A DNA stretch of 64,000 bases from contig NC_044573.1 of NCBI RefSeq assembly GCF_901933205.1, positions 57,047,993 to 57,111,992 of the forward strand. Direction: 5' to 3'. A program made the translations under genes and the position numbers. This document shows positions 25,003-49,639 of this stretch, piece by piece (position 1 is the stretch's first letter; each line of letters opens with the position of its first letter). Below the pieces are notes generated by a model. That model was not told the origin of the DNA. It ran no database searches and saw only the letters and a list, made by a program, of their open reading frames with translations. Source of the DNA: Camarhynchus parvulus (lineage: Eukaryota > Chordata > Aves > Passeriformes > Thraupidae).

Positions 25003-25036
<34 letters not shown>

Positions 25037-25072
25037 TCCCCCCCCTCCCTCCCTCCCTCCCTCTCTCTCTCT
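24993..25072. repeat. CT/CCCT polypyrimidine microsatellite
   Basis: An uninterrupted pyrimidine run of about 80 bases: CT repeats (25006-25034), a C-rich block, CCCT units (about 25042-25061), then CT again to 25072. On the opposite strand it is a GA-rich purine tract. It sits about 515 bp upstream of the SGK1.1 start codon. Long reading frames across it on both strands (for example a Glu/Arg-rich one on the minus strand) are products of the repeat. Such homopurine-homopyrimidine tracts can bind GAGA-type factors or form triplex DNA and are length-polymorphic. Confidence 0.95.
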
Positions 25073-25531: not shown

Positions 25532-25586
25532 GCAAGTGCCACACTGGCACACTGGATCTATCACTGTATACCCTTCACTGTGGAAA

Positions 25587-25655
25587 ATGGTCAACAAAGA
25601 CATGAATGGATTTCCAGTCAAGAAGTGCTCAGCCTTTCAGTTTTTTAAAAAGAGG
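25587..25655 (+). CDS. SGK1: SGK1 long neuronal isoform (SGK1.1), coding exon 1
   Basis: First coding exon, 23 codons, of the long isoform of serum/glucocorticoid-regulated kinase 1, an AGC-family Ser/Thr kinase. The peptide starts MVNKDMNGFPVKKCSAF and ends in FFKKR. It matches the human SGK1 isoform 2 N-terminus as I remember it at all 23 positions. The start is the ATG at 25587: it has a strong context (A at -3, G at +4), and the frame is closed upstream by TGA at 25500-25502 with no in-frame ATG between. The exon ends at 25655 with AGG followed by the donor GTAAG, in phase 0, matching the phase-0 start of exon 2. Family knowledge: this N-terminus replaces the hydrophobic, degradation-promoting one of canonical SGK1. 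Its K21-K22-R23 cluster helps bind PIP2, giving a stable plasma-membrane kinase that acts on neuronal channels such as Kv7 and ASIC1. The catalytic exons are outside the window. Confidence 0.96.
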
Positions 25656-26631
25656 GTAAGATTTTCCTTTAATCCTTTCTTTTTTCTTTTTTTTTTGCTT
25701 TTTCTTTTATTATTGGTGCATTTCTTACTTAGCCAGAGCAGAGAGAAAGTCATTGAAGAAGGAAAGTGCTTTACATTGGTCTCCTACTTTACAGAGCCCA
25801 TGGCATGGGCAGTTCTACTGAAGAGCAAGGGCAAGAGCAGTGTAGGTGAAGAGGAGCAGGGCAGGAGAACGAGGCTGGGGGCTCCAAAGGCATTACATCA
25901 GCACTCTTTGCTGTGGAATGTGTGTCTCTGTCACAGCTGACCCCAGGGCTTGACGCAATACAGGCAGCTATTCAGGCTGGGATAATGCACTCCAAAGCAG
26001 AGTGCAGGGATGTTGCAGCTTGTCTCTGACTTGCTCCTCTACATCCACCTAGGGTTATGACTCCCTCCACACCTTCCATTTACTTTCCTAAGTGTAGCAT
26101 TACCCTCATCCATTCATCATCTCACAAAGTAGGGAAAAAAAGAGAACAAAGAAGCATTTGTGAGCTCAGGAAAACACTTCACAGCTTGTAATTTGCCTGT
26201 AATCATAATTCATGCAGGAGAAAAGAGTTAGACTGAGCTACACCTGAATTTGATTTTATTTTATATTCTTTAATTTAGATATATCAGTATTTAGAAAATA
26301 TTTGCTATGCCTTTTATTTGATGATTTCCTCAAAGAAATGCAGGTGTAACTCTATCTCATCACTTTAGCTAAGTCCTTTCTGTTTCTTTGACTCTTTTCT
26401 AGTGACAACACTGCACAGTCTTTATTTAACTTGAGAAACAAAGTCATTTCCATGTGGCAGCAGGACAGGTATTCTGGATAAGTCTGGGTAGACCCAGACA
26501 GCAGAAGCAAAGCATCAGAAAGAGATTGTTAGCAGGGACTACACTGTGGAACGGATTTCCTGAGTGATTAAAAGGACAACCCTCTCTTTAAACAGACTGG
26601 AGTAGGAGCAGATAAGCTGCTCCATTCACTC

Positions 26632-26676
26632 ATTAGTTCATTCATTCATTCATCCCCATTCATTCTCTCTCTCTCC
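26632..26676. repeat. ATTC-type tetranucleotide and CT microsatellite
   Basis: Imperfect CATT/ATTC repeats followed by a short CT run, in SGK1.1 intron 1. Confidence 0.85.
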
Positions 26677-29600
26677 ATTATGCCAAGGATATGGTCAGTC
26701 CTTTTAACCCTTCAGGCAAAACAAAATGAAGCCTACACCAGTAACTAATTTGTAAACTGGGGTCAAACCCTTTCAGGCACCAAGATGCCACATTTAAGGG
26801 CAGATGTAGAAAATACTGGGTCACTCAGGGGAAAAAAGGTGCAGTATTAGCCAACAATTGTTGTTTCCAAGGTGGTTTGTAGAAGCCTCAGACTGATAAC
26901 TCAAACAGCACATAAATTCAGCCCATAAAAATGGTTCTTATCCCAACATACTTCTTATTTAAGTCCATTGGCACATGTATGTCTGATACTCAGCTTACCA
27001 GCAAGGTTATCTGTTTTGGGTGTTTTTTTATAAGTGCTTGAAGATTTTACTATAATTGTATTATTAAAGAGGAAAGTAACTGGCTTGCAATTCCTGTATA
27101 AGGTTCCTGTATTGGCAACTGTCTTCTATCTGTTTAGAGCCACTGAGAAGTTATCACTGGAAACCTCTACCTAATTTTGTTCTAGAAGAAGGGAAAATTG
27201 TGATTTGTGGGTTTTTTTCCAGACCTACACTGATAATCAGTGAATTTTCTGTTGAAAGAGATTGTTAATTGTAGTCATCATTGAAGAAACTGGCATACAG
27301 ATACAGTCCTGGACAGTGGAACAGGACAAACAGCTGCCTTTGGTTTGTGGTTTTCACTTTAACAGATGTTGCCTTTTTGCTGCTGTGATGAAGATAGACA
27401 AAATCAGTAAAACCAATTTAGAGACACAAAGAAGGGAGTTCTCTCCCTATACTTTTCTGTTAAGAGATAAATGTGTTCAATGATGTTTCTCTTACCCCTC
27501 TTGCCTTCCTTGCAGAAAATCCCCATTGTTCAATGCCAGTGTTTGAAATATACGCAAACAAGAAAAGCTGCATGCTCATAACGTGTTGCTGGCTCCCAGA
27601 AATATATCTTGCATTTGCTGGACTGGTGACATGTCACATATTAACTATTGGGAAAACAGGGAGAGATGATTCAAGAGTTGATTTGGTCCCCTGCCAGTGA
27701 TCTGGAGACTCTGGCTGAACAACCACCAGAATCCTGCATGTACAGAAGCACACATGCAAGGTTTCTTGGTCTGAGTGTGGTGTGTGGTGGAGCTTTTTGA
27801 TGGTTTGCATCCCCACAGCACCAGTGCTCCATAACCAGCACCCCAGTGGATGCATCCTCCATCCATCCGGAGCGGGAGGCAGCTCTTGCACGGCAGAGAC
27901 CAGCAGTCCTGGCTGCTGGGTGAGGTGCTGCTATCCCTCCTTACTGACAGATGCCTGAAGTCCAGAGAAGGAGATTTGTTATCTGGGTACTGCACAGGCT
28001 TCTCCAGACCCCCAGATCACAGGGTCTGTGATGAAACAAGGGGTGGGGCTCTGATCTCTCCAGTTTGAAATCCCTGTGTCTGTCTCCTCAAAAGCACACA
28101 TTCCTAGTACAGGTGATTTCCAAGTCTAATTCTAAAAAATCCAAATCAATGTAGAGTAAAATACACTAAATTTTGGGAAATGCTGCTACTATTTTTTTTT
28201 TTTTGGAAGAAAGTGCCAGATGTATCTTGATTGTTGTCATTTCCCATTGAGCCTTATGCTCTCATCAAATTGCAATCCTGTTTGTTGCTGTGTCCAAGAG
28301 TGCAGAAAGGACTGGCAGAGCTGTGTGGATTTAGACTAGGCTAAAAGTGCATTCAAACATTGACTTGAATTTGGGGAACAGATTTTTTTTTTTTAAGCCT
28401 GGTTTATTCTCTGATGACAAAGTACTGGCCCTCTGGGATGCTGCCTGCTGTGTCAGATGATTCAGGGTATGGACTAATCATGTCCAGAGGTCAGAGAACA
28501 GGAAGGAAAGGCTGAAATTAAAGGGCAGCACACTTAATTAAAATAAAAAGGGAAATAGAAACTATTTGTTTTGCTGAATAGCCTGTAGCACTCACTTCTG
28601 GTGGGGTTGGAACAACAAAATAGGGACTTCATCCACTTAAAATGGGTGCAGCTTGGAGAAAACTAATGGATTTACAATGCCTGTCTTTTTTTTCATTGTG
28701 AGAGATGTAACCAGTACTTGTGCCTAGAATCAGAAGTTTTAATGGTTAAATATTGGGTTTTAATTAAAGATGGCACAAATCTAAAAAGAGAAGGGGAGAG
28801 AAGAAGATGGGCCATATATAAGTACAAGGAGGAAATCTGAAGTTATTCCAATGAAGATAAATTATAAACATCATTGTTCAAATAATATTGGGCCATGGCA
28901 TAAAAGGATTACCTCCTGACAAGGTTGGGAGGTTAAAAGACATTGTTATCTGATGGCACACAATTACCTTCATTTTTACTACCTTCCTTTTCCTTGTCCA
29001 CTGACATTGCATACTGGGTACTGGTATAAATAACCCTTAAAAAGCTCTGGCTATACATGGCTGGGAAATCTTTTTTTCATATACTAGCAGCAGTCTGACT
29101 TTCCCAAAGTTAAATAAAAATGGTTTGTTAATTGGCAGAAGTCACATCCTTCTGTTGTGAGGGGCTTGCAGGTCTCATCCTTCAGAGCTGTGCAGGATGC
29201 CCACACAGCAGGATGCTCGCAATGCAAAAGAGCATTGAATGTGGTAAACCTACAAATATGCTATTCCTCTTCAGCCAATGAGATATCCCAGGGCAGAGGG
29301 GCCTTTCGTTTTCACCTACTGCCATCCCTGCCAGATTTTTTTTTGGCAAGTGAGTGTGTGTGGTATTTGCACTGCCTCTTCTGTTGCACTGGCCTACCTT
29401 ATGAAGATTTTGGATAGTATTTTACCGTATACTACCTCCTTCATATTAAAATAACATGCCATGTCATATATCACAACACAAACCAACACGGTTAAACCAG
29501 GCTGAGTGATGAGGAACCATCCCTGCCACTTAAATACTGTGCTCATGATATGGTAACCTCAGTGAATATGGAAATTTGTTATCCTCTTAGGTCTGGTCCA

Positions 29601-31259
29601 AGACCAAACACAAATTTATTCAGAATGTGAAGAAGATAAATTACTCAGAAATGGGAAAAGAAATAGTTGTCTTCCATAAAAGAAAAAAAAAAAAAGAAAC
29701 AGGGCATGTCTTAGAGAAGAAGTTTATTGCAGGGATTAAGGATTTGCTAGTCTGAAACCTGATAAGGGAAAGAATATCCATAATCCTTTTTCACTGAGAA
29801 AATTTACATTAATTAGCAATTTAGGTCAAGCCAAAGTGAACGCGCAAGAATGAAGAGAAAATAGCAACCTTTGTTTCCATGCAGTTTTTCCAAACAAGCA
29901 GTTTGTGGAAGCCATGTCCTGCTCCTCTCTTTGTTGATATTTTATGGCACTACATACCAACATACATTCCCCATACATGAGCTGAAAAGACCAACCCGTA
30001 AACATCATTGTGCATGCAGATGACAGCCCAGGCTGCACTAGAGCTCAAGGCAATACATGGGTGAGGGGACTGCAGAATTACCTGAGTGCCATTTTTAGGG
30101 CTACAGTAATTGAGTGATACAGAAAGCCCTTGAATGCAGTACTTCCAGCTGAGTTCCTACAGATTATGGTCCCTCTGGTAGATTGTGCTGTGGGGGAATT
30201 GCTCTCTGCTCTGCCACTCTTACAAATCTAGAAATTAATTTAAGGGCTGGAGATACATTTTATTTAGGGTAATTGGGAGCTTACCTAGAAGAAAATGAGA
30301 GACAAAATGTCTATACCATGGGAAAATCTCAGGAAAATCTCAGCTCTGTATGGGATGACTGATTATACTGCTGCTTTTCTTAGCTGCTTGGGCCAATGTC
30401 ACAAAAGTACATATATTTTAAAGCTGATTTCCAGAGACAAGGATCCTGGGTGACTACAAGTAAGGCAAAGACTGGCAGCAGAGAATTTTTTTCCCATCTT
30501 GCTTGTTCTGTGTGAAGAGTTGCTGAGCATCTATGGCTTTTCTCAGCATCAGCCAAAGCTGTAAGCTCCTTGCCCACCACAGCCCCAAATGCCTTCATCA
30601 GTCTATAACCTGAGCATTGCAGACCACAACTACCATGGGGCTGTAAGGTAACTGAGATGAAGGTGGCCTTATATCTCTGTCAGGCTTCAAGCCTGCTGCA
30701 AATGGTCATTGAGCTGACCAATAGTTTTCTCATCTTCTGCCTATCGACTGTTTCCTGATAAAGCCTATTAAGTAAACACATGGGATGAAACATGAGAATG
30801 GGTGAGAAACATCGTAAGGCCCCAGTACTGGTTTTCCATTAAAAAAATTGTTTTGTTCTGTCTTCCCATTAAACCAAGATGAGCTTTGGGTTGGGATCAC
30901 TGCTAATATTTTGTTTTTCAGCTAGCATACAGGAAAAGATTTATGACACAAAACTGGCAACGTTTAGACAAGAAAGTATCTGTGAGTCCCTTGTTCAAAA
31001 TTAAAATATGAAAGTGCTGTTAAAACTAAAGTGTAATAGCTTGGAATAAAATGAATAAAAGGAAAAAGAAATAGGGAAGAATAGTAGAATGAGAGAAAAG
31101 GAGAGAAAGAAAAAAGATCAAGAGAGAGGAAAATGTTATTTCTTATTAATTTCTCCTTCCTCTAACCTCTTCCATTCTCCTTCATAAAAAATGTAATACT
31201 AGAAAGTACATCCATACTCCTTAAACTTAATCTTGATCTTCTTTCCTAAACACGTCTCA

Positions 31260-32010
31260 TATTCCTCTCACAAATTTGTCAAGCTAATGCTTGAAGCTGC
31301 CCAGTCCTCTTCCAGTTTTGGAAAAATCCCTCTGCTTGAAAATTTAGAAATCCTCCTTTCCTTTTCAGCCTAGTTTTACACATGACCAATTTATTCCCAT
31401 TTGCTCTTTTACTGACACATAACAATAACTTATATAGATCGTGCCCTTCCCTCATCTATACAACCACTGGTGTATTTATAGAGAGCAGTCATTTCTTCTT
31501 TCAGCTGTCCTTGTCTAGGCTAAAGAAGACAACTTCCTTCAGACACTTCCTTTAGGGTAGACTTTCCCTTGCCCAGTAACTCTAGCAGACAGAGGCAGCT
31601 GTCATATTTGCTGGCCAAGAGATCTTTTTGAGGTTACCAAAGCATCCATACGGTCCTCTTTCAAAGTTCTTTCTCGTGGAGTCTGCTACACACTTCCAAC
31701 CTCCCTCCCGCTCTTTTCCCCCACTCTAGTCCTCTTTTGCTATGCAGATCTATGTGTCACTGGCAAATTTTCTGAGCATTTTCTGTATCAAACCCATCTC
31801 CAGTAGTAATATTCTTTTTGACAATACACTTTTTGCTTGGTCCTTTATCCCATGATTATGTTTGTAAGACTATTCTTATTCTCCATTTTAACTTATTTCC
31901 CCTGAGTTATCCCTGTGTTACTGAGTTACCAAAGACCATATGGATTAGATTATCCACATTTGCCTCATCAAAGGAAGACATCAGGCAAGTTTGGCATACT
32001 GCTAAATGCA
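31260..32010 (-). mobile_element. Ancient CR1/L3-like LINE relic, antisense
   Basis: A diverged block that I read as an old amniote-age CR1-like element in minus orientation. Landmarks in order: a TTTATAGAGAGCAGTC block (31477-31492); TTGTCTAGGCTAAAGAAGAC, equivalent to the CR1 antisense 'CAGGCTGAACA' block; a TGTGTCACTGGCAAATTTTC block near 31755, where CR1 has its 'cell-fate' TGTGTCATCTGCAAACTT motif; then GATTAGATTATCCACATTTG and CTCATCAAAGGAAGACATCA near 31945-31983. It has far more mismatches than the CR1 copies above. The right end may run to about 32300. Confidence 0.55.
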
Positions 32011-35000
32011 TGTTGCATATTATCTCATTTTCTACTGAACTCTTTAAAATTTGCTCTCCCTTCAGATGTGATAGTTTTGTTTCTGTTCACATAGTCCCAT
32101 AAGTTTTTTTCTTCTATGCTGTACATCATTGTCCTCCTGGAAAACTCAGAGCACAGAATTCATTTAAAGATTTACTCTTTATCTTACCTCACTCTTTCTG
32201 AGAAATTGACTTCTTTATTTTTTTTATTTCAGATTCTGACTGGGTTTTTCCAAACATGCTCTCAGCTCTTTTGCCACTTTCAGGTCCTCATTATCCACCA
32301 TCACTAAATACAAATAGCGATTCGGGGAGGTTCCTTTGAGAGCCTGCTCTGGCTCATTCCTTTCAAGATCAGATTAGATATTGCTTAAGCCGCAAGAGTG
32401 CTTTGGTCTGCCTTCATTACATGCCTTCAGAGCTGAGCATGGCTTCTTTTTGGGGAAGGGCCAGCTGTGAGATCTCCCAGTCTTCTGCCAAGCGCATATT
32501 GACAGTGTTTTAAATGCCACAGAGTGTGGAGTCAAATTCTTAGAGCTATTCTGCCCCAGACACAATGTTGTCACTGCTCCCATAACTCAGCTCAGCAGCC
32601 TCAGTATCATTTACCCTTAGTCTAAACATCCAAATTGTCTGAAAAACATTGTGATGCAAGAAAACATCAGCAAGAAGAACAGCACAGAGGGCTTTGGACA
32701 CTCTTAGCTGTGTGGTAACTGGTGATGCAAACTGAGATACTAAGAAAGGAGACAGCTGTGTCTGCTGAAAAATCAATGTGATTCCTCTGCCAAATGAGGA
32801 GATTGATAAATATGAGCTGCAGGGACTGGGAAGGACTATGGGTTTGCAGCAACTCTGTGTATATGTTACCCTATCTGCTAATTAAAGACATGGCTTTGAT
32901 GAGGGTTACAAGCTCAGGGGAGGTCAAGGGTTGTGTCCATAGAGAATGTAATCAGAGAATTGAAAGCAAGGGGAAAGCTTATATCTTTCTAACAAATTGG
33001 CTGATGTAAAAAAGAAGAAAACAGGAGGACAGGAACCATCTCTGCAGAAAAACATGTAAATGGAGATGCTAAGGCAGTGGAAAGCCAAGCAAAACCTAAA
33101 ACAACAAAACTGTGTTGCAAAATCAAATCAATAACACAGAACATTTTTTTTCTAAATGGCACGTTATCACAAAATAATTGCTAGTGGTTGTTATTTACAA
33201 CAGTTGCTTTTATTGCAAGACTATTAAATATAGGGAGTAAGAAAAAAATAGCTCCAAAAGCAATAAATCTTAATGTTTATTGAAGACTGTACTGAGAGAT
33301 TTCCAGATCAGCTCACATGCAATTAACCAAGACTCAAAATATCCTTACAAGGTAGAATAATCATACCCATTTCACAGGTAAGTGCACAAAGAGAAAATAG
33401 GCAACTCAGTCAGTTAGACAAACTCATATCCAAAACAACAGTTTTTCTTTCTTTCCTGACCCTTACTCTAAGTTTTCACCACTAAAATAAAAATTTCCTT
33501 TCCTTGAAAGAGCAGTAGCAAACATCTGCTTGGGTTTGTGTGGCTGAAATTTATGCAAGCATTTTAAGCAGCTTAACAGCAGCAGCACCAAAATAATTTT
33601 TTTCAAGTGGTCAGAAGTCTTGCTGACATGGCAGTGGCATCAGAAGATGCTAGATACTGTGTTAAGTTGACAAGTTATTATTTCCAGTCTACTCAGCTCA
33701 TTAAAAGATTGCAAAAGGAAAAAGCATCATAAATTGAGATTCTGCCTGCCCTGCAAAGTCAAGAGTGCCAAGGGGCATGTTTGTCTTATAAGTGTCTTCC
33801 AGCATGACCAAGCCTGCTCTCGTACCGTGGCCCATCAGGAAATGGCTATAGAGGGGACAGCCTGAGACTGGAGCCCATAATCCAGCAGTTATTTCACTGC
33901 TTTTGTGTCTCCCACAAGTAAACCCTAATAATCAAATTTCTGCATAACATCAGTAGCACGGATGGTGAGCTGTGCAAGGCATGGGGACAGCCTCTTTTTG
34001 CTGTAGGTGTGCACTGATGTTGGTTTGGTGTCCGCCACCAGCAGCAGCAAACTGTTTAATGTCCCAGCTCCAGTGAAGGAGGAGGTATGTGTGCAGTCAG
34101 ATGCTGCAGCTCAGTAGTCAAGGGGCTGCTTTTCCAGATGCCAACAACCTGTCTGCTTGTGCTCTTCAGGGCCACACACATATTTGTACACTGGGCAAAC
34201 CATGCCGTGGGCATTCAGTTGTCCTCTGAAAGGATCCAGAGGACTACACATGGTAAAAATCCCTGTCAGGCAGGCAGTGCACATTCGGACTTTTCTGAAA
34301 ACATTCAATATTCAAGAGGAGGAATGGGAACCCTGCCTCCACTGCCCCACTGCCAGCTGACTATTGGTGTGATACAGAGACGGGACATGACCCTGGGGGT
34401 CCTATTCTGGAAAGGCTCAATTTGCACCTACCCAGATCAGCACTCTTTCAGCATCCCTGTGGGCTGGGACCTTTTCAGGAGGTATTTTAAGGAGCTACCT
34501 CACACCAGTACTGGGTGCAAAAAGAGTATGCAGGAAGACAAACTCATTGCAACTCAGGCTCCTGTGTAACATTTGACCCTCGGAATCTACCTCAACTAGA
34601 TCAAGAAGCATCATTTGGCCAGCTGTCTAGATTGCAAGCTCCTCAGGGTAGAGAAAAAGGGACTGAGAGCGCCTAAATAGTTTGGATTCAATTCTCAATT
34701 GAGACTTCATGGACAAAAACAAGATAGTCAAAATCACTGACTACTGTTGCCATCAAAATTATTTTTATATGACTGATTTGGGAAGAGCTGGCGGCTTTTG
34801 TACTTATAGATGGGAAAGATATCTTTTATTTTGTGCTCTGTTTTTATATTTGTCTTCCTTCAGTCAGTTCGCATGTATACTTTTTACTGGGGATGTTAAA
34901 AGTTTTCAAGTGGTAGCCAAAATAAGTAAAAAAAGTTATTAAGAAAAATGCTTGAACTGCAGGTCAACAATGCAAATTTACATGTATTGCAAAAATTTAC

Positions 35001-35869
35001 CAAAGAACTGGTCCATAAAATGGCTTGAAATTCTTTCCAAGCTAATTAATTAAGATTAGTGAAAAAAAATATACAGTTCTTTCAGTATCTTTTGTTTTCT
35101 GAAAAGATCCCTGCAGTATTCTAATGAAAGACTGTTAAGCTTTAATGGCCTAAACTGTAGGTTGGTTGGAATTTGAATAATTTATTGCTAGCTTCAAAAT
35201 TAAAATTTTGAGGCACACTGACATGGTTTGACACACTCTGATTCATCCAAAACTTTGGATCCCACATTCCTTAAGGGTCAATTCAAAGGAGGGCTTCTTG
35301 TAAGGACAGCAGCTGTAACATCAACTTTTCTGGTTGGAGTGTTGGACTAAACCTCTATGCTGTGGGAACAAAGTGACTGTGGGAATCCTCTGTGTAAAAC
35401 CTTTCTGACTTAGGCTGTGATATAAAGAAAACTCATGTGAAGAGAAGATAATGGAAGGTAATGCTGGAGGAGGACAGCCCATGAAATACAAACCAAAGCA
35501 ACCTTTAGCTCTGTAGTGTGACCTTTTCTTCTCACCCCAACAGACTAGAGGTGTGATTAAAACCACAGTTGCTGTGCCTCAAGGTTTGGTGTTCAGTTTG
35601 CATCCTGGCTCCATGTCATCTTCTCTCCTGCTCCACAGATATCCTAACCCTTTATACAGTGATATCACTGACTTCAGACTGATTTCTTTTTCATCTCAGA
35701 CACTGGTATAAAAGTTGATTAATAACCAAGCCTTTTTATTTAGCACTACTAATCAGGGATGGTCTTGAACTCCCAAAAAACAGATGAACATGAATGTTGC
35801 TCAATGCTTTGCAGCTCTGTGTTATCATTATATTGCAAGGGTTCCATGTTGCTAGAGTTTCATACCTCC
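32011..35869. other. Intronic sequence without recognised elements
   Basis: Part of SGK1.1 intron 1. A 160-codon frame at 34087-34569 on the + strand is long by local standards but resembles no family I know and lacks a convincing acceptor; listed under rejections. Confidence 0.5.
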
Positions 35870-36080
35870 TTGACGTCTCTTATAAGCAGCTCCTCTAAGC
35901 ACTGACTCTTCCTTGTCCTCACAGTAGCCAACTGTCTCCTACCAATCCACTCTTTTATAACACTCTTCTTATTGGCTACAGCTGTGGCCTGTTAACCACA
36001 GGCCTGCTGCTCGTCTTTAGTAATTGGTTCAGCTGCAACTCTTTAGGGGATAAGATTACATTCTATACCACCTTCATTTA
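35870..36080. mobile_element. LTR-like patch, CCAAT-rich (hypothetical)
   Basis: A distinct stretch with two TATAA-like motifs (CTTATAAGC at 35879; TTTATAACAC at 35954) and three CCAAT boxes in alternating orientation (CCAATCC near 35943, ATTGGCT near 35971, ATTGGTTC near 36023). It also has a symmetric TGTGGCCTGTTAACCACAGG segment near 35984. Such spacing of promoter motifs is typical of solo endogenous-retrovirus LTRs in birds, but I cannot name a family or see target-site duplications. Confidence 0.3.
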
Positions 36081-39000
36081 CCCATCATAGTGTATCCCCC
36101 GACAGCTCTGTAGATGGGCATCCTAAAGATGCAGCCATCATCCAAAGATGTCTTTAGCGCTACCAAGACCTTTAGAGAGGTGGAGAGACAAGAAGAAACA
36201 CAGTCACCAGGATGGAATCTAGAGTGTCTCTTCATTATCTTGGCCCTGACACTTCTCTTTTAGCTCCTGCATTTCAATTTGACAGTGTCTCCCCAGTGTG
36301 TAACATCAGGAGTTACAATGTGGTGGAGATGGGGGATGTATGTTTTTGATAAGGAGATTGTGAGATTTGATTCACCCTGTCAGAAAGAAGCATTCATTAG
36401 TGTCCATTCTTTCCTAAGCCTATGGTGTCCATGCGTGCACCTTCCATCAGCTCCCTGTGAGAGGACGAGGTCTCATTTCAGATTCAAAAGTTCCTTTATT
36501 TTTTATGTCTCTTCTTCTGTACTGTATTTTTTTTTCTTTTTGTACAGTGGTAAGAGAGCAAAGGTCTGGGATATCTTGCTTGGACTAAATAAATTATTTC
36601 CTTCTCTATTTAAGATTAATTAAGAAATGTTGAAGGGATAAAGGTCAGAGCTACTCTGAGATTGTTCATTCCTTTCCCCAATTATTCCATATATACTAAG
36701 CCTGAAAGAGCTGTAATTAGATATGAGACAAGCCTCATGAGGTTCTCTTTCTGTGCAGTTCCAAGCAAACTAGCAGTCATCCAGAAGTTAAATATGTAAA
36801 TAAATCATCTTCTTTTCAACAAATTTCTTCTGTTCATCATACTTCTCCCTTCTTTCTCTCCAAGGGCTAACCAACCTGGACCTTTCCCATATAGTAGCCG
36901 GTGTACTGAATAGGCCCATACAGAGCTGAAGGGAGAGATTGCTGCTTCTCCATTGCAAGCTGCTAGAGAGCCCAGCCTAGCAGCGTGCTTTGTGAAGCCC
37001 TTGGAGTAACTTGTGTGAGCCTTGGAAAACTCCAGCAGCTTCTGCACCAAAATATCTTGGCACATTTGTGTTTTTATATGGGATCCAGACAACCACACTG
37101 GGTTTCTCCACTGTAGGTATGCCACCTAAAAATTGATTCACCTGCCCTACCAGGTGAATCAAAAGCACGTGTGCCACATGCCCAGGTGCTCTGCAAATGA
37201 GAGAAATTATTTGCAAGGATGGAAAGGAGAGCTGAGATTGGTGATTTGCTGATTTTCCAAAAACTGTCTGTAGTGAAGAAGTTACTGGCCAAGTCCACAA
37301 TGCTAGGCTGTCATCTGATTTCCCTTATTTCATGGTCACAATACTAGGAAAACTATTCAATCCATTTAAAAACCTGTCTGTCTCAGGTATTATCTTCTTC
37401 TACTTGCCTTCTTTAATTTCAATTTACTTTCTCCATTTCACTTATTCTTTGACACAGTAATTTATATTGGTGACTAGCAGTCCTGTAAAAGTATTTGCAC
37501 ACCAAATTGAAACCATGTAAATTATCCTACCTGCAGGGTATTCTTAATATTTTCTCTGATGTCATAATTATTGTTTAACCTGCTTGGCATTGAACCCTCA
37601 AAAATGTTGGCATTCTCAGAGGAAAAATGTGCTAGCTTTCAGAAGCTTTTGCCCAAAATGACTTCAGAATATTTATTTTTTATTTGCAAGAGTTAAGCAA
37701 AAGAAAATCTACACATAACAAAGCATAAGGAATAAGAGATTCAAAACAATCTGCTTCAGTCACAGTCTTCCCAAAACCAACAACCTACACATGTGGGAGA
37801 CTCCAACCCACAAGCTGATAAGTCAGCATTGGTGACTTACACTTCAGCTCATGTTTCTAAAACAAAGCTCTTTATTGCCTTCATCTTGTAAATAAAATGA
37901 AGACCACAAGGAATAAATGCTGGATAATATGTTTCTTGCGTGTGTGAGTGCGCCCCTGGAAAAATGCTAAGCTAAGAAAGGAAATAATGTGAAGGGCAGA
38001 AAGAAAGCCTCCCTTGTTTCATACTTCTTGAGTGTGTCTGGTTTGCGTCTGTTACTATGTTTTTCACTTAAGAACACTTATTTCTTTAATACATATGAAT
38101 GACTGGTTTTGACTGGCAGTTTGAAAATGTGGTTTTACTCCAATTAACTGTACTTTTTGTCTGTACTTAGCCCTTCTTAAAACCATATTTCTCCAGCTAT
38201 TTTAAAGCAGGAGCAAAAACAACACATGGAACAATTTATTGAAATGCCAGGCAGGTTTGACAGGTGCAGGAGAAACTGCTTAGCTTCACAAATTGAAACA
38301 GCTGCAGTTTTATAGGTGATGAAATTGCATTGGGATGGGGTTTCAGATTTGTTAGTTCATCTTGTGTTTGCTGTTTTGTTTTTGAAGCATTGAGTCATTT
38401 CCCCCTCTTCAAGGAGGACTTGTAAGACCTATTTCTCAAATGGAGGAGGCATCTAGTCACCACAGAGTGATGGGAAACTTGGTGAAATTCAAGCAGATTT
38501 CAGAGTAGATTGAAATGTAACTAGAAAATAGTTTTCTCCTCATGGGATTATAAATAAATGTTGCTGGCAGCTTTTGGAGCAGGAAATGCTATAAACATTT
38601 GGTCCATTTTTCAGATAGCCTGAGCTAAGATTTTATTACATATATCTAAAGAATATCATGCGCAGAAAAATTTGAATCATTAACCAACAAATTTTAACCT
38701 CAAAAGAGTCTCTTATATCAAGGAGGTTTACTTTCAGTCTGTACAATTGCTAGACAATGATGTATGATTTAGTTTCAAATTATTCAGGACCATAAGTTCT
38801 CCTACAGTGTCAGAGTATGTATCAAGTGGTCTGCTTTCCATAACTTCATTTTATCATCCTAGTGGAGAAAAAATCAGTGATCAAAATCAGTGAGTGATCT
38901 TATAAGAATTGGTCACATTTGGCAATGAATTAATTTGTCAAAACACTTGAACTATAAATCCTCCTCCTAGCTTAAATCCCTGCTGATAATGGTTTTTTAA

Positions 39001-39114
39001 GTCATAACTTCTTGTACGGTTTGGAATAAAAAAAAATCTTTTAGATCCTGATGGAAATTGATTGGTGTTTTGCACACTGCATCTCAGCTGGGATGCCATT
39101 TAGAAATGGCTAAT

Positions 39115-39238
39115 TTGAGTGGCATGGGACTTTAAGCAACCTAGTCAAGTATAAGGTGTAGAAGCCCCATGGCAGAGGGCTGAGAACTAGAGGATCTTTA
39201 AGGTTTGTTCCAACCCAAACCTATTCTGTGATTCTATT
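39115..39238 (+). mobile_element. CR1 LINE tail, short sense fragment
   Basis: The last 120 bases or so of an avian CR1. GGGACTTTAAGCAACCTAG and CCCCATGGCAGAGGGCTGAG lead to AACTAGAGGATCTTTAAGG, TTCCAACCCAAACC and the tail ATTCTGTGATTCTATT. The left boundary is uncertain by about 20 bp. Located in SGK1.1 intron 1. Confidence 0.92.
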
Positions 39239-40061
39239 ACTCAGTATCTCCTTTGACTTGGAAAAGAAAAGCAAGGACATTTGCCTGTCTGTGTTTGCCA
39301 GGCTGATAGATGACAAGATCATTCCAGAGTGCTCAAGTGGGGCTTGACCAAGGCTGTGGCAAGTCCCCCATGGCACTGCCATGCCACACTACACACGGGC
39401 CTGCATGGCAGAAGTCCCTGCTGCCAGGTCCCAGGGACCTGTCAAAGGCTGATCTGTAAAAAATTACTGCCATCTTTCACCAGGAGCCCCTCTGGGAATA
39501 CTGAAGCTTTCTAAGGTGTATGGTCTGTCTCACAGCTCTGTGAATATTTTGGCATATGTCTCTCACAGGGCCAGAAGGACCAGGCATCCTAAATCAGCTT
39601 GTCTAGTGGTCCTGGTTGCTTTAAAGATTGACAAAAAATTAGGATGCTCTGCAAAGTTATATAACAAATTAGAAGGGTCACCTTCTGCCAAATCTAAAGG
39701 AGATTAGTGAAGTGTAGAGTTAAGCTCAAATTTGAAATAGAGAAGTTATTAATTTCAGGCCACACAAAATATGCTTCCCTGCTCTGACAGTACGAAGCTT
39801 TTGAATAGTTAAGGATGACAACTGAATGGGACTTGGTGCTGTAACCAGTCATCCATAATGTTCTGCCACTGCAGTCATTACTCTTGCACTGCAGTTAAAC
39901 TTTATAATGCTGGGCTATTTCAGCCGAGATTACTGAAGGATTCAAAATAACCATTGCATCAAGAAACTGAGATGGAGAAAATGTACACTGAGGTATCTTT
40001 GTTTTGCCTGGAATTTTTTCATTCACCTACCTTTGCTGCCATTCACATCCAAGCATGCATT

Positions 40062-40103
40062 CCTGTGCCTGGATCAGATGCTCCTGTGCCCAGATCAGAT
40101 GCT
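40062..40103. repeat. 21-bp tandem duplication
   Basis: Copies 40062-40082 and 40083-40103 share CCTGTGCC and AGATCAGATGCT/GGATCAGATGCT cores, differing at two positions. Confidence 0.88.
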
Positions 40104-41429
40104 CACCCTGCAGACTGATTTGAGGCTTGACTAATAGATGTGGGATGTGGTGTTTATCAAAGCAGGAGTTAAAATAAATGTTGCCTGGCCTTACTGACAA
40201 TTGGCATTGCTCACATGAAACACAGAATAGAGAAGGTACCAGCAAGCAGCCTCAGACTATTTGGATAGGATTTCGGGTTGTATTGTTTGTGTTGTTTTTA
40301 TTTGATCTAGATGAAAAGCACTTTTAACTTGGTAGCCTGGAAAGATTACACTTGCACATACACAATAAAGCCCATTTTGTTTTGTTTTGCTCTTTGACAT
40401 AATACGCAGAGGGTGTTTATACACCAGAATGGACAATGAATCTATTGTCCCATCTCGTGTAGTAACAAGTGCCATCAGTGCTTGCAATTGATCCAAGAGC
40501 TCTTACCTGATTCCAACACATCAGTTATTTATTTATTCACAGAGAAAAGAATCCCATGACACTAACAATTGTTATCAAGGACAACATTGGAGGAAGCAAA
40601 AGAGGAAAATCCTAAGAGATGCCTATTCAGTTATTTAGAATTTTTTGGTGCCATATTACAAAAAATCAGTGTGAGGGCACAGCAAAAGTTAATTTAGGTA
40701 TTAATGTGAGATGTGGGTTTTACAAACTTTCTCCTGCACTACTGGAGCTGCCAAGAGCTTTCCCATTTACTGGAACAGGAAAATCAACCACGCAGTTTGC
40801 AGTGTGCCCATTAACAGTAGATATTTGCAATACTAGTGTGCCTAAATTTTCTGCTGCTCTTCATGCCTTGAACTACATGATTTACAACTTGTTCAGCAGA
40901 AATATTTAAACCCATATTTAGGAGATTCCAAATTCTTTGAGTCATTTTGGTACCCATCAACTTTTGGGATTAGTGCCTGAATGCAGTCACATGTTGACAT
41001 ATATTTTTTTAAGAATCTTGCCTTTGCTGATTTTCTTCTGTGGCCTGGAGACATGCCATTCACACTTAAGATCATAAAAATCTGCCTTATTTACTTGATG
41101 TGTTAACATTGCAAGTGATGCAAGCGATGACAACAAGAAGTACTGAAATATTTGCTGCGCCTTCCCTTGGATAGATCTGATTTCTGCCAGATGCTGTATA
41201 TTCCCTGCAATACCGAAGTGTGCTGGGGCTCCTGTGAAGAACGTGGTAATTCCCTGCACTTCTCCACCCCGAGCTGTGGCAAATCTGTCCTTCCCCAGAT
41301 CCCCCTCACATGCAGGTAACATTTTTCCTGGCAGAGCTGGAGGACTAAACTCTCCTTGAACCCAGGGCATGTACATCCAGCCTTGGACAGAAACAAAGTG
41401 CTCTGCTATTTGGCCTCTGTCTGCTTTTT

Positions 41430-41960
41430 AGCGAGCGGCTTCTCGGCGTTGCAGGGAAAGCAGCAAATGATGACTGTGCAGCGTGTTGCCCTTCACTTTC
41501 CCTTTTAAAATAAAATGTGATTATTAATCAACAGAGTGGTGTGTTTCAGAGATCTGCAGGGAAAAAAATAGCTCGAGGTGATTTGACAAACTGATTCTTT
41601 TGCTGCGCCCGCATTTCCCATGGGACATGACAAATTAAATGTCAGAGTCAGCTAGAGAGTAGTGCTAGATCTCAGTCGGGGCATTAATCAGCCTGCCTCT
41701 CGTTTACCACTTTCCACTCAAGTAGATGACTGTATACAGTTTGAACAATGGAGCTTTTCATTCCCTAATCTACCTAATTGTAATTTAAATAGGTTTCCTG
41801 ACAGTCGCCCTCAAGACTTCGGGGGAGATGATTCCGAGAGCTCTGCGTCCACCTCGGGTTTACATAATGGATGAAAATTCAAATCTTTGTTCGGGGTGCA
41901 ATTAGATAACGTCAGGAAAAGGAAAGAAGGGATCAGATGAACAGCAACCGGAGAAGGGGG
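41430..41960. promoter_or_regulatory. Candidate conserved enhancer in SGK1.1 intron 1
   Basis: This stretch stands out from the AT-rich intron by retaining many CpGs and a dense set of transcription-factor-like motifs. There is a perfect 13-bp palindromic homeodomain/HNF1-like site TGATTATTAATCA (41518-41530). There is a SOX-type AACAATGG (41744-41751) and clustered TAATTG/TAATTT sites (41775-41790). A ready-open frame at 41662-41874 is present but lacks splice sites and family resemblance, so I regard it as incidental. Enhancer function is inferred; cross-species alignment would decide it. Confidence 0.5.
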
Positions 41961-43327
41961 AATGTACATTTGATATCAGAGGAAGGCAGAACTCAAACAC
42001 AGGCACATACACTGACCTAGATCACACTCCAGGCGTTTGGTATTGTCCGGCAGGGAAAAGAATATCCAGAGACTTTGAAATTCAACATGCAGAGTAAAGG
42101 AGCTGACTAAGAGCCAAAATAACCCATAACTGATGCAAACAAACTTTCATGAATAATGGCATTTAAGTACAGAAAAATTCAAGGGCACAAGTGGTTTATT
42201 CCAATTTCCCACAAAAATATGAAAAAAAAGCCTGTCCAAAGTTTAAGAGGGAGAAAATGCTGTTTCACTGAGCACAGTGCTGCACAGGCTGTCAGATTAC
42301 ATTTGATACTATTGTGTTGATGGGTGTGATGTTTCATTGAGAACTGCCTGATAGTACTGGACCTCCAAGCAGTTTTTTCCAAAGTTTTCCTCAAGCCATT
42401 CCATCATCCAGTTTATGCTCAGTCCTCAGCAAATGTCTTCAATTTTAAATATCTAATGGCCTAGCAAATTTGTCTACAATCTTATGCTGTTTTTCTTTCA
42501 CACAAATATTACTCCAGGATGTGTATCTTCCCACCCTTCTAAAATCCTTCTAAAATCCACAGGCACTGGGGCTTAGTGCAGTGGAGTGACTGCCACATCC
42601 ACAAAGGGCCTAATCTTGCAAGACGTTATGTCCCTGCATAACCTGCTTTTTCTTTTCTTGTGTATTCATCAGTTCTGAAGGTCAAGCGTTCAGCTGTGAA
42701 GCCAGCAAAGAAGCTCGTCGTGTCCTGTGAAGCACCAAGTTTTTCGGAGCCTCCAGTGACAGGGAGGATGCTCCAAGATGGTCACTGGTGCCACTGGCAT
42801 CTTTTTTCCTCTGAGCAAGAGCCACATCTGCATTGGTAGAGGCCCCAGGGAACAGGCTGGTGTTTCTCTCATGGAAAATATTCCTCATAATTGCAGTGAT
42901 GGGGACTAGCTTATGGATAACCAATTAAAGTGTAGAATGTGCTGAGTCGACTGATGCCATTGACAACTGAGCCATATCAAATTAAAAGCTTTATTTGTTT
43001 GCTATTACATAACAGGAAAAACCAGGAGTGAAAAAAAACCCTGGAACTTGGCAAATCTCATTTAATCACATCTGGCAATTTTAAGTCTAAGATTATCACT
43101 GTTGGATATCATGTTTTTAGAAAGTAAAGCAAACAAAGAAACTTGAGAAAACAAGGCTCAGAAAATAAAGAGCCTTTAAAAAAATACTTGTGCACCTTTC
43201 AGCAATGCTACAGGCCATGCTTGGGAAAAGGGTATTTAGAGCTGCTCTCTAGCAACAGTCATATTTCAATTTAGTTTGGGATTAGGGAAACATGGCTACA
43301 GATTAGAAGGGTGCAGAACACTCCTTT

Positions 43328-43365
43328 GAACTCACTTTTCTTGAAAGAACTCACTTTTCTTGAAA
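43328..43365. repeat. 19-bp perfect tandem duplication
   Basis: GAACTCACTTTTCTTGAAA occurs twice head to tail (43328-43346, 43347-43365) without mismatch, so it is recent. Confidence 0.95.
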
Positions 43366-43995
43366 ATTTTCATCAATTTTGTTTGTTGTCATTGCAAGAA
43401 ATGCCAAAAATCCCAAAGAATTTTAACTACTTCCAGAGCTCCTTTGGTGGTCCAACAAAACCACCAATAGAAAAAAAAATTAAAATGCGGCAGGGTGGAG
43501 AAGTGTTTACTCCCAGTCATGAAAGCGAGTGTGAAGTTGACTGCATTTGTTCTAAATAATTCGTTCTGTCTCAATAATAAACAATAATAAAAAGAAAGAA
43601 AAAATGTCATTTGACTTGAAAATGTGAGATTTTTGATTTTGGAAAAGTTGAAATTATTTGCTTTGAAAATCTCAAAACCCTTCATTTTAAGAAATTATTC
43701 ATATGAGTAGTTATATTAAAGCTGATTATCTCAGACACATTTAGAGTCTGCTGCTTATACTCTACAATGGTGGATGAAATTACTGGGCAAAATTAAGGGG
43801 CCTTGCCTTGGAAACAAAAGTTCTGAAGTTGTCAGAGGAAGTTCAGAGGAAGATTGCTTCCTGCAGTTAGGAGCAGGCTCTAATTTATTTAGTAGTAGTG
43901 GATATCTTGATGAGAAAAAAAAAAAATAATGTGTTTGAATAATAAAATACTCCTTACAGCACCACAAAGAATTATGCACCTAGCACATTGCTGTT

Positions 43996-44349
43996 TGAGC
44001 CTTGGGGAGACCTTACAGCATCTTCAAGTACCTGAAGGGGCCTTATAGGAAGTCTAAAGAAAGGCTTTTTACAAGGGCATGTAGTGACAGGAGAAGGAAC
44101 GAATTTGAACAGAAAGAGGTTTAAATTAGGTATTAGCAAGAAAATTTTCAGTATGACAATGGTGAAGCTCCGGAACAGATTGCCCAGGGAAGTTATGAAT
44201 GCCCCATCCCTGGAAGGGTTCAAGGCCAGGCTGGATGGGGCTTGGAGCAACCTTGTCTTAAGGAAGGTGTCCCTGCTCACAGCACGGAGATTGGAACTAG
44301 ATTAGCTTTAAGATCCCTTCCAACCCAAATCATTCCATGATTCTATGAT
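43996..44349 (+). mobile_element. CR1 LINE 3' end
   Basis: About 350 bp of avian CR1 in sense orientation, 5'-truncated. It starts at GCCTTGGGGAGACCTTACAG. It keeps the conserved order GGAACAGATTGCCCAGGGAA, CCCATCCCTGGAAGGGTTC, AGGCCAGGCTGGATGGGGCT and TTGGAACTAGATTAG, and ends CATTCCATGATTCTATGATC, the 8-bp CR1 tail repeat. It lies inside SGK1.1 intron 1 and is among the better preserved CR1 copies here. Frames across it on both strands are remnants, not genes. Confidence 0.95.
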
Positions 44350-45239
44350 CACATAATGCCCTAAATAGCAAACTATCATCTGCTACTTGTTAATCTTAAT
44401 TTGTGAAATCAGGGAAGAAACTCTGAGAAATTTCTTTAAAATTCTTTTAAGTTTTGTGCAATCCAATGTAGGATTTTTTTTTGCGGAAGTGAATTAAAAA
44501 TAAATGAATATTTGCACTTTGAATCCCTTAGTGACATTTAAGATAGCCCAAGTCAAACAGACCTATAGATCTAAAGCACTTGTCTAATGTAAATGTAAAT
44601 ATTAAAACCTCAAAAAATCTTTGAAGTCTATTAAGGTTAAAGCTAGACAAAAGCCTATAGTGTAGACTTACATTCAGTGACTAATACATATACATAACAT
44701 TTCAATAAACTTAACTGAGGCCCCCGGAAAAGTAATATATAATCTACAAGCATCAATAGAAACCCAAGAACGGCATAGCAATGGCCAGGGAAATTGGTTT
44801 TCTTCCAAAGTCTGATCTTGACCTTGCTGCTATGAAGTTGCTGCCAGTTCCTACTTTCAAATCAGTGTTTTCAATGACTTTGGACATGGATATATGTTGA
44901 AAGTCAATGGTGAATCATTGAATTTTCTACACTCTTCTGTGCATTTTACTCAATGTTATTTCAAAAACAAATGTAGGGTTTTTCTGCAAAGGGATACTGA
45001 GGAGCATTAGTCTGAATTAGTTGAAGAAGTGAAATTAGAGGAGTTGAATGTCATTGAAGTCCTCCTGAACCTCTCAATTCAGAATAAAACCCAAAATTTT
45101 AACTTTGATAAATGGAGTAAACGACTGAAGAACTAATTAAACCCACTGCAATTCTGACCCAAGCTGCCCACACAGGGCCTGGATGTGCATTTACGTGACT
45201 TGTGACTGGAGAGCAGACTTTAGCACATCCATGTAGGCA

Positions 45240-45400
45240 AGCCCTAGGAGCAGCCCAGCACGCCAGGCGTTGGCAGAGCTCCTGGGCACAGCCACAGCCC
45301 AGCCCCAGCGCGGCTCCCCGCGGGCGCTGCCGGGCAGGTCTGGGCGCGTGGGCAGCACCCAGGAGCGCCTCACTCAGGGGCAAAGGCTGCACGGGAAAGA
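45240..45400. other. Isolated CpG cluster in SGK1.1 intron 1
   Basis: Twelve CpG dinucleotides between 45261 and 45393, including CCCCGCGGGCGCTGCCGGG, inside otherwise CpG-poor intron. It is 3.1 kb upstream of coding exon 2. It is too short for a classical CpG island but could mark an internal alternative promoter or a recombination-linked GC patch. Short open frames on both strands reflect base composition. Confidence 0.7.
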
Positions 45401-47199
45401 AAACAACTTCCCTGGGCTCAGCTGTGCAGGCCCTGGGTTTCTATTGACATTTGTTGATTGTACATTGCTTTTCAGAGTGACTCAGTTAAGTTTATTGACC
45501 TGTTACGTGTGTATTGCTGAGTCAGCACGGCGTCCTGGACTGGATGTACGTGAACCTGGACTTTGTCCGACCTAATGAAGATAAACTACTTTTAAAGTTC
45601 TCCTCTGACAGTGCATTTGTGGGTGTGCTAACCTATTGGAACTTTTTCCAACCATTACAAAAAAACCAAACCCAACAATCGTGCTGCTTCATTCAGTCTC
45701 AAAGCTGGATTCTCCAGAAATTTTTTCACTTTAGTTTCCCCAAAACTCTGCTTCATTCAACAGAACAACAATATGACCAGAGTTTATACTGTTAAACAGT
45801 GTTCATGATCATGCTTATTTTTCATCTCTCAGTACAGGCCATAATATATAAATAATACGGACCTATCATGTGAAAACTTTGGTTTAGCCCAACATTTTTA
45901 AACAGCAATAAGTAATCCATAAAAAAAGGTGTGTATCTGGCTTAAAATCAGGAGTCAACTCTGAATAAATAATAAAGAAAGAAAAATTCTTCAGAATTCA
46001 GATTGAACTCAGGAACCACTTGCTGATGCTACAGAGAGAAATGCCATCTACATTCTGGTGTGTGCAGCTTCTTAAAATGCACTCTGTGTTACTTTCCCTC
46101 ATCATTAAAGTACCAGTGGTTAATTTTTAATTTATGAGCATGATACTGCAGAATGTATATTTCATTACCATTAAAAGGTACAGCTACAAGATCATTCAAT
46201 AACAACTCATTTTGGTGTATCAGGAGCACCCAGGTCACATTTTGAATGCTTTTTCATACACAAGAAGGCTAGAGGTATGTAAATGGAAACACAAGAGAGT
46301 GAAAATACAGGTGAAGTTACAATAGAAATTACTGTTTAACTGTATCACTGCAAATGTCATTAATTTGATATCACAAAACCAAACATCATAGGGTCTTAAT
46401 GAAACCTTAGATCCACATTTACATGTGAATTCCATATGCAATTGAGAACTCTCAAGCAAAAGACTGGCCTATGTTTCCTGAATTTTTAAGGAAGACTAAA
46501 CCTGCAGCTCATTGCAGCCCTGGTCCTTTTCTGCTGTCAGTTTGGTTCTTTATTCATGTACATTTCTGCACACTGTGTGCTCCAATACTAAAATGACTGA
46601 AGCTGCAGGATGTTGAGGAAAAAAGGCAGAACCAGGTCAGAAAATACTTAACTGACCACCAGGTATATCTTGAAAAGAACAAATTCAACATTTACTTCTT
46701 TCAGAATCACATTAAATATATTGACTGTTTCCTGTAATAAAACTACACGGGGAAATCAAGCTTTTTTTTACCATTAATATAATAATTATTTTCAACACAA
46801 CAAAATCTGAAATTAGATCAAGGCACATAACCATGTATTTATTTGGGGAGAGTAATATATTTAATGATGTGCTTAACAATCACAGAATCAATTATGCTTG
46901 GCAAAAATATATTTAAAAAAAAACTTGCCTGGGTTAAAAGATCAGTTTCTATACATTTGTTGAAATTAAATCTGAAAAAAATAACCCCTCCCCCCTACAA
47001 CTTCAACCCATCAACCTGAAGCTAAAGCAGTCTGGATATTTTGTGGGGATGCTCCAGAGCATGGAGGTAGAGGGTAATATTATCCACATGAACTGACATT
47101 AAAAAATGCAAATGGGGAATGTTCTGGAAAGTGGCTCATTTGCCCACAGAAGGAAATCTATTTGCTTGGTTTCCATAGAGAGGAAAGAGAAATTTTCCT

Positions 47200-47520
47200 A
47201 ATGTTGAGATTTCCGGCAGGTTAGCAGAGCAGGCGCTTTGCTCATGGAGGAGTCACCAGGAGAAGGCCAGTTGGAGATGTCTCATTCTGTTTGTTTATCA
47301 TGCATGATCCTGGTTACCAGTTGCTGTGATATAGATTTCCACGGTTAATCAAGTACTTGCCATCCTGCTCGTGACTAATGTAAGATAAAATGGTGGTTTT
47401 TTTCCTAATGTAAAGCATCCTCTAATGGCAAATATCATCTCTTAATGAAGAATGGAGCTGCTGAGGCCAGGGATCCCGGAGGAAAGAGATTGCATCCTGT
47501 CAATAGGAGGACAGCTGGGC
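47200..47520. promoter_or_regulatory. Candidate conserved enhancer upstream of exon 2
   Basis: About 1 kb before coding exon 2. It contains a forkhead-type GTTTGTTTATC (47289-47299) fused to a perfect 12-bp palindrome ATCATGCATGAT (47297-47308), then GGTTAATC (47343-47350) and further AAGTACTTG and TAATG motifs. Motif density and low simple-repeat content suggest selection; function is inferred. Confidence 0.4.
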
Positions 47521-48467
47521 TGTCAGCCCTGGCTGCCTCAGCCTTCACCCTCCAGGCTGGGAGAGTGTGTCCTGAGACATCTCTATCCCTCCTTTGCATT
47601 CAAACGACAGAGTTCTGATCAGATTCATTGCAAATAGACCACAGCTCACATAGTGGTCTTTTTGCTTTCACAGTGCAAAATAACTTGGAAAAAGAGCTCA
47701 GAAGGGTCTCTCCTCACTTAATGTCTAAGAAATCCAATACTGCTGATTCACATCAAAGAGACAGTCACAGAAGTGAAAGGAAAAGCAAACAAAGTGCACA
47801 AGGCTGACACTGTGCCCTGCCAGCACAGTGCATTTTGCTCGTAACCAGTGCCCTTCCTACTGCAGTGCCCTGGGTCCTTGCTGGGAAGATGCAGAGATGA
47901 GGAGAAGCCAGGGGGAAGGCAGGTTAGAGGAGTCAGGGTCAAAATTTGGGGCAGGTCAGCAAGAGAAACTGACTTTTGAATGGAGTGATAGGAGGCACAG
48001 AAAAGGCTGAGGTAGTTTATGAAGTCAGAGATTATACAGGAGATATTGCTGTTGAAAGAAAGGACTGCAGAAAGCAAGTCTTACAATTCTATTCCTGCAA
48101 AACCAGTCTGTTTTTTCTCATGGGGAAATTGAGCTGTTTAGACTGGAAGTACTTGCTTTGGGTAGTTATTGCTCTCTTCTTAGCAGTCTACTGTGTACTT
48201 CAATATATTTATAAAGCCTTTATTTTGTAGATAAACTTATGGCAGAGTTGCACAAAGCAGCAAAAAATTCTCAGCATTAAGAGCCTGGCTATGACGATGT
48301 GTGTTCTCCCTGATTTACTTGGTACTTTTTCCTACAGAAAATTGATCCTGATCCTCATATCCGATTATTTACCCCAATCTGCGCTACTGTCCTCATTGGA
48401 AACCCTGTTCTGCCATCCCAACAGCTGTAGAGCAAAGAGAGTCCATAATCTGCTTCTGTGTTGGCAG

Positions 48468-48683
48468 GTACGAAGGTGGATTAAGAGCCCGATGGTCAAC
48501 GTTGAGAAGCATCCACATGCCAGCCTCAAATACCCGGGGCCCACTGTGATGAATTTACCTGCAGGGGATTCAGAGCTGGAGCCTCCCTTCTGCCAGACCT
48601 GCCTGAGTGACCACCCTTTCCAGCGAGGGATTGCTCCTCAGGAGGCCGAGTCCTGCTCCTGGGAGAGCCAGAGAAACAGCAAA
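48468..48683 (+). CDS. SGK1: SGK1 long neuronal isoform (SGK1.1), coding exon 2
   Basis: Second coding exon, exactly 216 nt (72 codons), residues 24-95 of SGK1.1. The acceptor is a pyrimidine-rich stretch ending TTGGCAG at 48467. The donor is AAA followed by GTAAGC at 48684. Both ends are phase 0, so the exon is symmetric. The peptide begins VRRWIKSPMV, continuing the basic run from exon 1 (FFKKR then VRRWIK). It carries SLKY, a CQTCL motif (Cys65 and Cys68), FQRG and ESCSWE, all shared with the human isoform 2 sequence I remember. Human also has 72 residues here; by recall about 41 of 72 are identical, so the linker evolves much faster than exon 1. In human the next exon begins VREPCNHAN; I did not find it in this window. 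Skipping this exon would keep the reading frame but remove half the basic patch. Confidence 0.95.
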
Positions 48684-49639
48684 GTAAGCCGCTCTTTCCT
48701 CCCCACAAACTCCATTTACATGTTTTGTACTGATAACAGGTCTGTACTTAAAATGGTCCTGTATTTAAGAGATTGTGTGCCCCTGGAAGAGAAGGGATGT
48801 TCCAAAACCTGAAACTCTACTGACCAAGGCTGTTGTGCACATCTGAGCTCTGCTTTCTACCTTGAAATTTGGTGCCCATGGAAAACAAAAGAATCTTCAC
48901 TAAAGTGCTGTGATGTACTCTCATAGCATTTGAACAGATTAGTAGTAATAATAAATATTATTTCTCTGTTTCACAGAAACTGGGGTGAGGATAGGTGATA
49001 TTATCTTTCCAAGATAATGAAAAGGACACAGATTTGCTCATTTTTTTCCCTTCTGTCCAACAAGTACAAGACCACGTTCATCCCCTCTAGCCCCCAAACC
49101 ACATCTAGCTTTCTTTTTAGAAATCAGAATTTGGCTCAGGGAGTTTTCCCAAACAGGAGGTAAACTATTCAGGGGATCTTCTAGCAGAAGGGAAACCCTG
49201 TTTTGCCTCAAGTCATGTTAGTATGTAATAGATGACAATATTCTTCATCTAGTGCTGGGCAGTTACACACAGATGTGAAGAAGGGGCTTTTCTGAGGCCG
49301 ACTTTGGACCTTTTTTTCATTGTTCAGCTCCACATAATCCCTGTGGAGAAAAGCCATATGCAGAAGAGAAAGTTTTCCACAGAGTCTGTCATCCCTGACA
49401 GAATTATCCTTGCCTGGAAATGGTGTGCAAAAAAAGGAGAGAGTTGTAGAAACATAAAAGCAAACAAATAAGAATCTTTCCAAGTACAAAGCAGAGCAAA
49501 TATGACAAGGCATTTATCAGAGCCTTAGCATACAGCTCACAGCAGAAACATTTTTTTCAAACTACATTTGCTGCATTTTTAAACAGGGAAATCCAAGCAG
49601 CAGGTAAAAATGGAAGTCCTGTGCACTTCTGAAACCCAG

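What the first reader, a model, noticed from the sequence alone, without database searches (positions are those of the whole stretch)
25587..48683. The window carries the N-terminal exons of the neuronal SGK1.1 isoform, easily missed by ORF-based annotation
Two short phase-0 exons (23 and 72 codons), 22.8 kb apart, join exactly into the SGK1 isoform 2 N-terminus. The exon 1 peptide matches the human one I remember at every residue, and exon 2 has the same 72-residue length as human. Bird annotations often start SGK1 at the canonical short first exon, so this distal promoter may be unannotated.
Basis: partly seen in the sequence, partly recalled or inferred. Interest (0 to 1): 0.85.

Follow-up and report, generated by a model that had tools for sequence, protein, structure and literature searches.

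The report
Distal exons of bird SGK1.1 kinase
This stretch of finch-like DNA holds the first two of three exons that give the enzyme SGK1 its known membrane-binding front end, a form already recorded in other birds and in mammals, so the find is real but ordinary.

Summary
Exon 1 (25587-25655, 23 codons) and exon 2 (48468-48683, 72 codons) are phase 0 with good splice sites. Joined, they match a Camarhynchus (Geospiza) parvulus protein at 100% and the start of full-length SGK1 kinases of other birds. Exon 1 is letter-identical in 60 of 73 proteins collected.

Two corrections. First, full-length bird SGK1.1 has 120 isoform-specific residues, not 95; a third, 25-codon exon was not found in the window, so intron 2 is probably longer than 15.3 kb. 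Second, the isoform is not unannotated in birds: 526-residue SGK1 with this N-terminus is held for Ficedula, Athene and Aegotheles, and a 496-residue model for Anas.

Among short proteins, 18 of 18 rows naming a bird call it uncharacterized or hypothetical (that search could not see full-length kinases). The C. parvulus model equals the window's translation and runs past donor 2 into intron 2. I read such models as truncated.

Verdict: ordinary, already known. Brain expression and promoter use were not testable.

The parts
25587..25655 (+). SGK1.1 coding exon 1, 23 codons from ATG, MVNKDMNGFPVKKCSAFQFFKKR, ending at donor AGG|GTAAGA
   Evidence: Translation and borders; exact 23-residue match in 60 of 73 collected proteins
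25656..48467 (+). Intron 1, 22,812 bases, GT...AG
   Evidence: Follows from the two exon borders
48468..48683 (+). SGK1.1 coding exon 2, 72 codons, phase 0 at both ends
   Evidence: Translation and borders; aligned without gaps to other birds and Oryx
48684..48812 (+). Start of intron 2. In the C. parvulus database model it is translated as a 42-codon tail ending at TGA 48810-48812
   Evidence: Window translation equals P0003 in full, 137 residues; in other species the tail differs in sequence and length

Best explanation
These are the first two of three isoform-specific coding exons of SGK1.1 (SGK1 isoform 2), in a passerine bird, most likely Camarhynchus parvulus or a near relative. A transcript starting upstream of 25587 splices exon 1 to exon 2 across 22.8 kb, then to a third 25-codon exon beyond the window and to the shared SGK1 exons beginning AFMKQRR, giving a 526-residue kinase. 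The junction of exons 1 and 2 falls inside the basic-aromatic stretch FQFFKKR|VRRWIK, which most likely binds membrane PtdIns(4,5)P2 and holds the kinase at the plasma membrane, as reported for the mammalian isoform. Shown here: the exons, their splice sites, their conservation, and full-length bird proteins with this N-terminus. Inferred: promoter use, brain expression, and membrane binding in this species.
For: Exons and splice sites. 100% match to a C. parvulus model (P0003) and 95% identity over residues 1-120 of the chimeric query to full-length Ficedula SGK1. P0065 has the Pkinase and Pkinase_C domains. Residues 9-28 are invariant in 19 of 19 aligned sequences from coelacanth to finch. 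One 2829-base assembled contig of unnamed source encodes the whole 526-residue spliced protein (P0070), which fits a spliced mRNA. The mammalian N-terminus is reported to carry a PtdIns(4,5)P2-binding cluster of hydrophobic and basic residues (PMC4425028, passages); here 11-residue stretches starting at residues 17-22 have helical hydrophobic moments of 0.68-0.81.
Against: No RNA evidence from this species. Exon 3 and the kinase exons are not in the window and the own genome could not be searched, so their linkage here is not shown. No CpG island near exon 1 (observed/expected at most 0.20). Of the 18 bird rows none is named SGK1. AlphaFold2 gave no usable model (mean pLDDT 32.9).
Confidence: 0.96

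Rival explanations
1. The exons form a separate short gene that encodes only the 'uncharacterized' protein of about 137 residues, unconnected to the kinase.
For: Stand-alone models exist for C. parvulus and 17 other bird rows; Ensembl-style tails run into intron 2. The closest relative with a comparable tail, Junco, keeps 36 of 42 tail residues and the same stop.
Against: Full-length bird kinases carry the same N-terminus. In 17 chosen proteins compared with P0003, exon 2 keeps 48-70 of 72 residues (16 with the whole exon; 52 of 64 in the other), while tails are 17-56 residues long with differing ends and sequence. A perfectly placed splice donor sits at the point where conservation stops.
Confidence: 0.02
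2. The exons are relics: the reading frames survive but the distal promoter is no longer used in this bird.
For: No expression evidence was available; no CpG island upstream.
Against: Both frames and splice sites are intact, and exon 1 is identical to that of most collected proteins (60 of 73).
Confidence: 0.02

Closest known systems
SGK1.1 / SGK1_v2 (SGK1 isoform 2, NM_001143676) of mammals
   Same: Exon 1 peptide identical in the mammalian full-length proteins P0069-P0072; 23 + 72 residue layout before a third segment in Oryx
   Different: Expression and lipid binding are reported for mammals only in the passages seen (PMC4425028)
Full-length bird SGK1 of 526 residues, e.g. Ficedula albicollis (P0065)
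   Same: 95% identity over residues 1-120 of the query; same start and junction
   Different: The window holds only 95 of the 120 isoform-specific residues and no kinase exon
Camarhynchus (Geospiza) parvulus 'Uncharacterized protein' A0A8C3NNQ0_GEOPR (P0003, 137 residues)
   Same: Letter-identical to the window's exon 1 + exon 2 + 42 codons of intron 2
   Different: Not named SGK1 and not joined to the kinase: most likely a truncated model of the same exons

Membership tests
SGK1.1 (SGK1 isoform 2) | N-terminal exon 1 peptide MVNKDMNGFPVKKCSAFQFFKKR | tested here: met
   Identical at 23 of 23 residues; exact in 60 of 73 collected proteins
SGK1.1 (SGK1 isoform 2) | Exon 2 continuing VRRWIK..., phase 0, about 72 residues | tested here: met
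   72 codons with consensus splice sites; aligns without gap to bird and Oryx proteins
SGK1.1 (SGK1 isoform 2) | Third isoform-specific exon (25 residues) before AFMKQRR | tested here: inconclusive
   Present in bird full-length proteins but not found in the window; sequence beyond 64000 could not be read
SGK1.1 (SGK1 isoform 2) | Spliced to the SGK1 kinase domain | tested here: inconclusive
   True of related bird proteins. In the window no kinase exon; own genome search did not complete
SGK1.1 (SGK1 isoform 2) | PtdIns(4,5)P2 binding of the N-terminus | not testable with these tools
   Only the motif and its amphipathic character were seen; binding is reported for the mammalian form (PMC4425028, passages)
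SGK1.1 (SGK1 isoform 2) | Expression mainly in the nervous system | not testable with these tools
   No RNA data available

The most novel reading that the evidence does not exclude
The distal SGK1 transcription unit makes, besides the kinase, a kinase-less N-terminal fragment by ending in intron 2 or in an alternative last exon. Such a fragment could compete with SGK1.1 for membrane PtdIns(4,5)P2.
Probability: 0.08. Interest if true: 0.45.

Novelty: already known. Interest (0 to 1): 0.12.

Why it matters
It matters mainly for annotation. In several birds, the matching finch included, a database model stops in intron 2 and leaves the SGK1.1 start as a detached uncharacterized protein, so isoform-level expression in bird brains could be misread. 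The 20 residues across the exon 1-exon 2 junction that do not vary in 19 aligned sequences from coelacanth to finch also show that the membrane-binding start of SGK1.1 is old and strictly kept.

Tried and rejected
Third exon in the window: a recalled human exon 3 peptide gave a best E of 0.068 at 46014, upstream of exon 2. Five relatives' exon 3 peptides gave a best E of 0.032 at 9096-9188, upstream of exon 1; beyond exon 2 the best was E = 0.061 on the wrong strand. All rejected. Rfam at gathering thresholds: 0 matches. Other coding content: 10 of the 39 ORFs scanned with Pfam, one match below its cut-off (15.6 bits against 27). AlphaFold2 model of Ficedula SGK1: mean pLDDT 32.9, not used, no fold search made (one search repeated its collection). 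PDB sequence search of the 95 residues: two weak RBM22 matches, best E = 0.036, treated as chance. Six paper searches: in the listings I saw no title about SGK1.1 in birds, but four of the lists were short cuts of long result sets (20 of 394; 12 of 164; 8 of 3,013; 5 of 52,173), and the two founding papers (PMC2393749, PMC2653283) are not held. I make no claim that it is absent from print.

Full report
Observation. The two exons are present as described. Window 25587-25655 translates to MVNKDMNGFPVKKCSAFQFFKKR and 48468-48683 to 72 residues. Borders are AGG|GTAAGA, TGTTGGCAG|GTACGA and AAA|GTAAGC, all phase 0. Intron 1 is 22,812 bases.

What it is. The joined 95 residues were searched against about 5.8 billion proteins: 62 proteins with E <= 1e-3 among 64 candidates. 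The tool only considers proteins of 0.55 to 1.75 times the query's length, so full-length kinases could not appear. Six of the 62 rows are named SGK1 or serum/glucocorticoid regulated kinase 1, all mammalian; most others are uncharacterized or unnamed, and one (P0028, Manis) bears an unrelated name. The best, P0003, is an 'Uncharacterized protein' of Geospiza parvula, taxid 87175, now Camarhynchus parvulus, Thraupidae. All its 137 residues equal the window's exon 1 + exon 2 + the first 42 codons of intron 2 up to the TGA at 48810-48812. The window is therefore most likely from this finch or a near relative (inference).

Link to the kinase. A second search used a full-length chimera (window 95 + Geothlypis exon 3 + recalled human shared part; residues 1-120 scored): 11 proteins with E <= 1e-3 among 23 candidates. 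They include 526-residue SGK1 of Ficedula, Athene and Aegotheles and a 496-residue one of Anas. The Ficedula protein has the Pkinase and Pkinase_C domains. One of the 11, P0070, comes from a 2829-base assembled contig of unnamed source that encodes all 526 residues, as a spliced mRNA would.

Conservation. In the 73 proteins P0003-P0075, the exact 23-residue exon 1 is in 60, its 15-residue core in 67, the junction peptide FFKKRVRRW in 58, and the shared kinase part in 10. The six without the exon 1 core start in sequence before exon 2 or inside it. In 19 sequences that I chose from those 73, residues 9-28 do not vary, from coelacanth to finch. A third search from the coelacanth N-terminus returned 11 proteins of 11 candidates: coelacanth, frog, four birds, three mammals and two from unnamed sources. 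No ray-finned fish appeared, but the search needs shared exact words, so this is no proof of absence.

In P0065, 120 residues precede AFMKQRR: 23 + 72 + 25. The last 25 (in Ficedula MKEPQSKGDSLPKPEPRTLWGGEDT) are a third isoform-specific exon. It was not found in the window, so intron 2 is probably longer than 15.3 kb. The third segment is not the same everywhere: the Gorilla model P0072 has a different 25 residues there and the coelacanth one is longer.

Annotation. Of the rows that name a bird, 18 of 18 are called uncharacterized or hypothetical. I compared 17 chosen proteins whose sequence runs on past donor 2 with P0003 (9 named birds, one crocodile, one turtle, six of unnamed source). Exon 2 keeps 48-70 of 72 residues in the 16 with the whole exon, 52 of 64 in the other. 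The tails are 17-56 residues long and mostly differ in sequence and end. The exception is Junco, whose tail keeps 36 of 42 residues and the same stop, against 69 of 72 in exon 2; for a close relative this is still lower than in the exon. I read the models as truncated by read-through. Full-length SGK1.1 is nevertheless held for several birds, so the isoform is not unknown in birds.

Mechanism. The exon 1-exon 2 junction splits FQFFKKR|VRRWIK. Helical hydrophobic moments of 11-residue stretches starting at residues 17-22 are 0.68-0.81, the highest of the 30 stretches computed. [quoted passage not shown] PMC8662703 (passages) reports PIP2-dependent increase of Kv7.2/3 membrane abundance. The same action in this bird is inference. 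The AlphaFold2 model was of no use (mean pLDDT 32.9).

Most novel reading. Four proteins from short assembled contigs of unnamed source join exons 1 and 2 but lack the kinase (P0029, P0037, P0051, P0053; longest contigs of 918 to 1550 bases). Five proteins share an ending that begins GII after exon 3 (P0037, P0044, P0045, P0051, P0053); two of these are models of the monkeys Trachypithecus and Rhinopithecus. A kinase-less product is therefore possible in mammals. For this window only an AATAAA at 48950 could be added, weak with 54 on the + strand of 64 kb, and the tails are poorly conserved. I give it 0.08.

Limits. No RNA data were available. The founding SGK1.1 papers are not held.

Noticed in passing
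P0037, P0044, P0045, P0051, P0053 (proteins): Short mammalian proteins share a possible alternative last exon beginning GII after SGK1.1 exon 3, without the kinase.
   Followed up: partly
P0058: A Myotis brandtii model joins exon 1 directly to exon 3, skipping exon 2; exons 1-3 being phase 0, such skipping keeps the frame but removes VRRWIK.
   Followed up: no
P0028: A pangolin protein with the SGK1.1 exons 1-3 carries the unrelated name 'Signal Recognition Particle Subunit Srp68', probably a naming error.
   Followed up: no
window 25540-25586: The bases just before the ATG, read in frame (GSITVYPSLWK), resemble those before the same ATG in P0063 and P0075 (GSITVNSLLWK), so the 5' leader next to the start may be conserved.
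   Followed up: no
window 24993-25072: An imperfect TC repeat (40.5 copies) lies about 500 bases upstream of exon 1.
   Followed up: no
window 48530-48680, exon 2: Residues 62-86 of the joined peptide weakly resemble the splicing factor RBM22 (E = 0.036), probably by chance.
   Followed up: no
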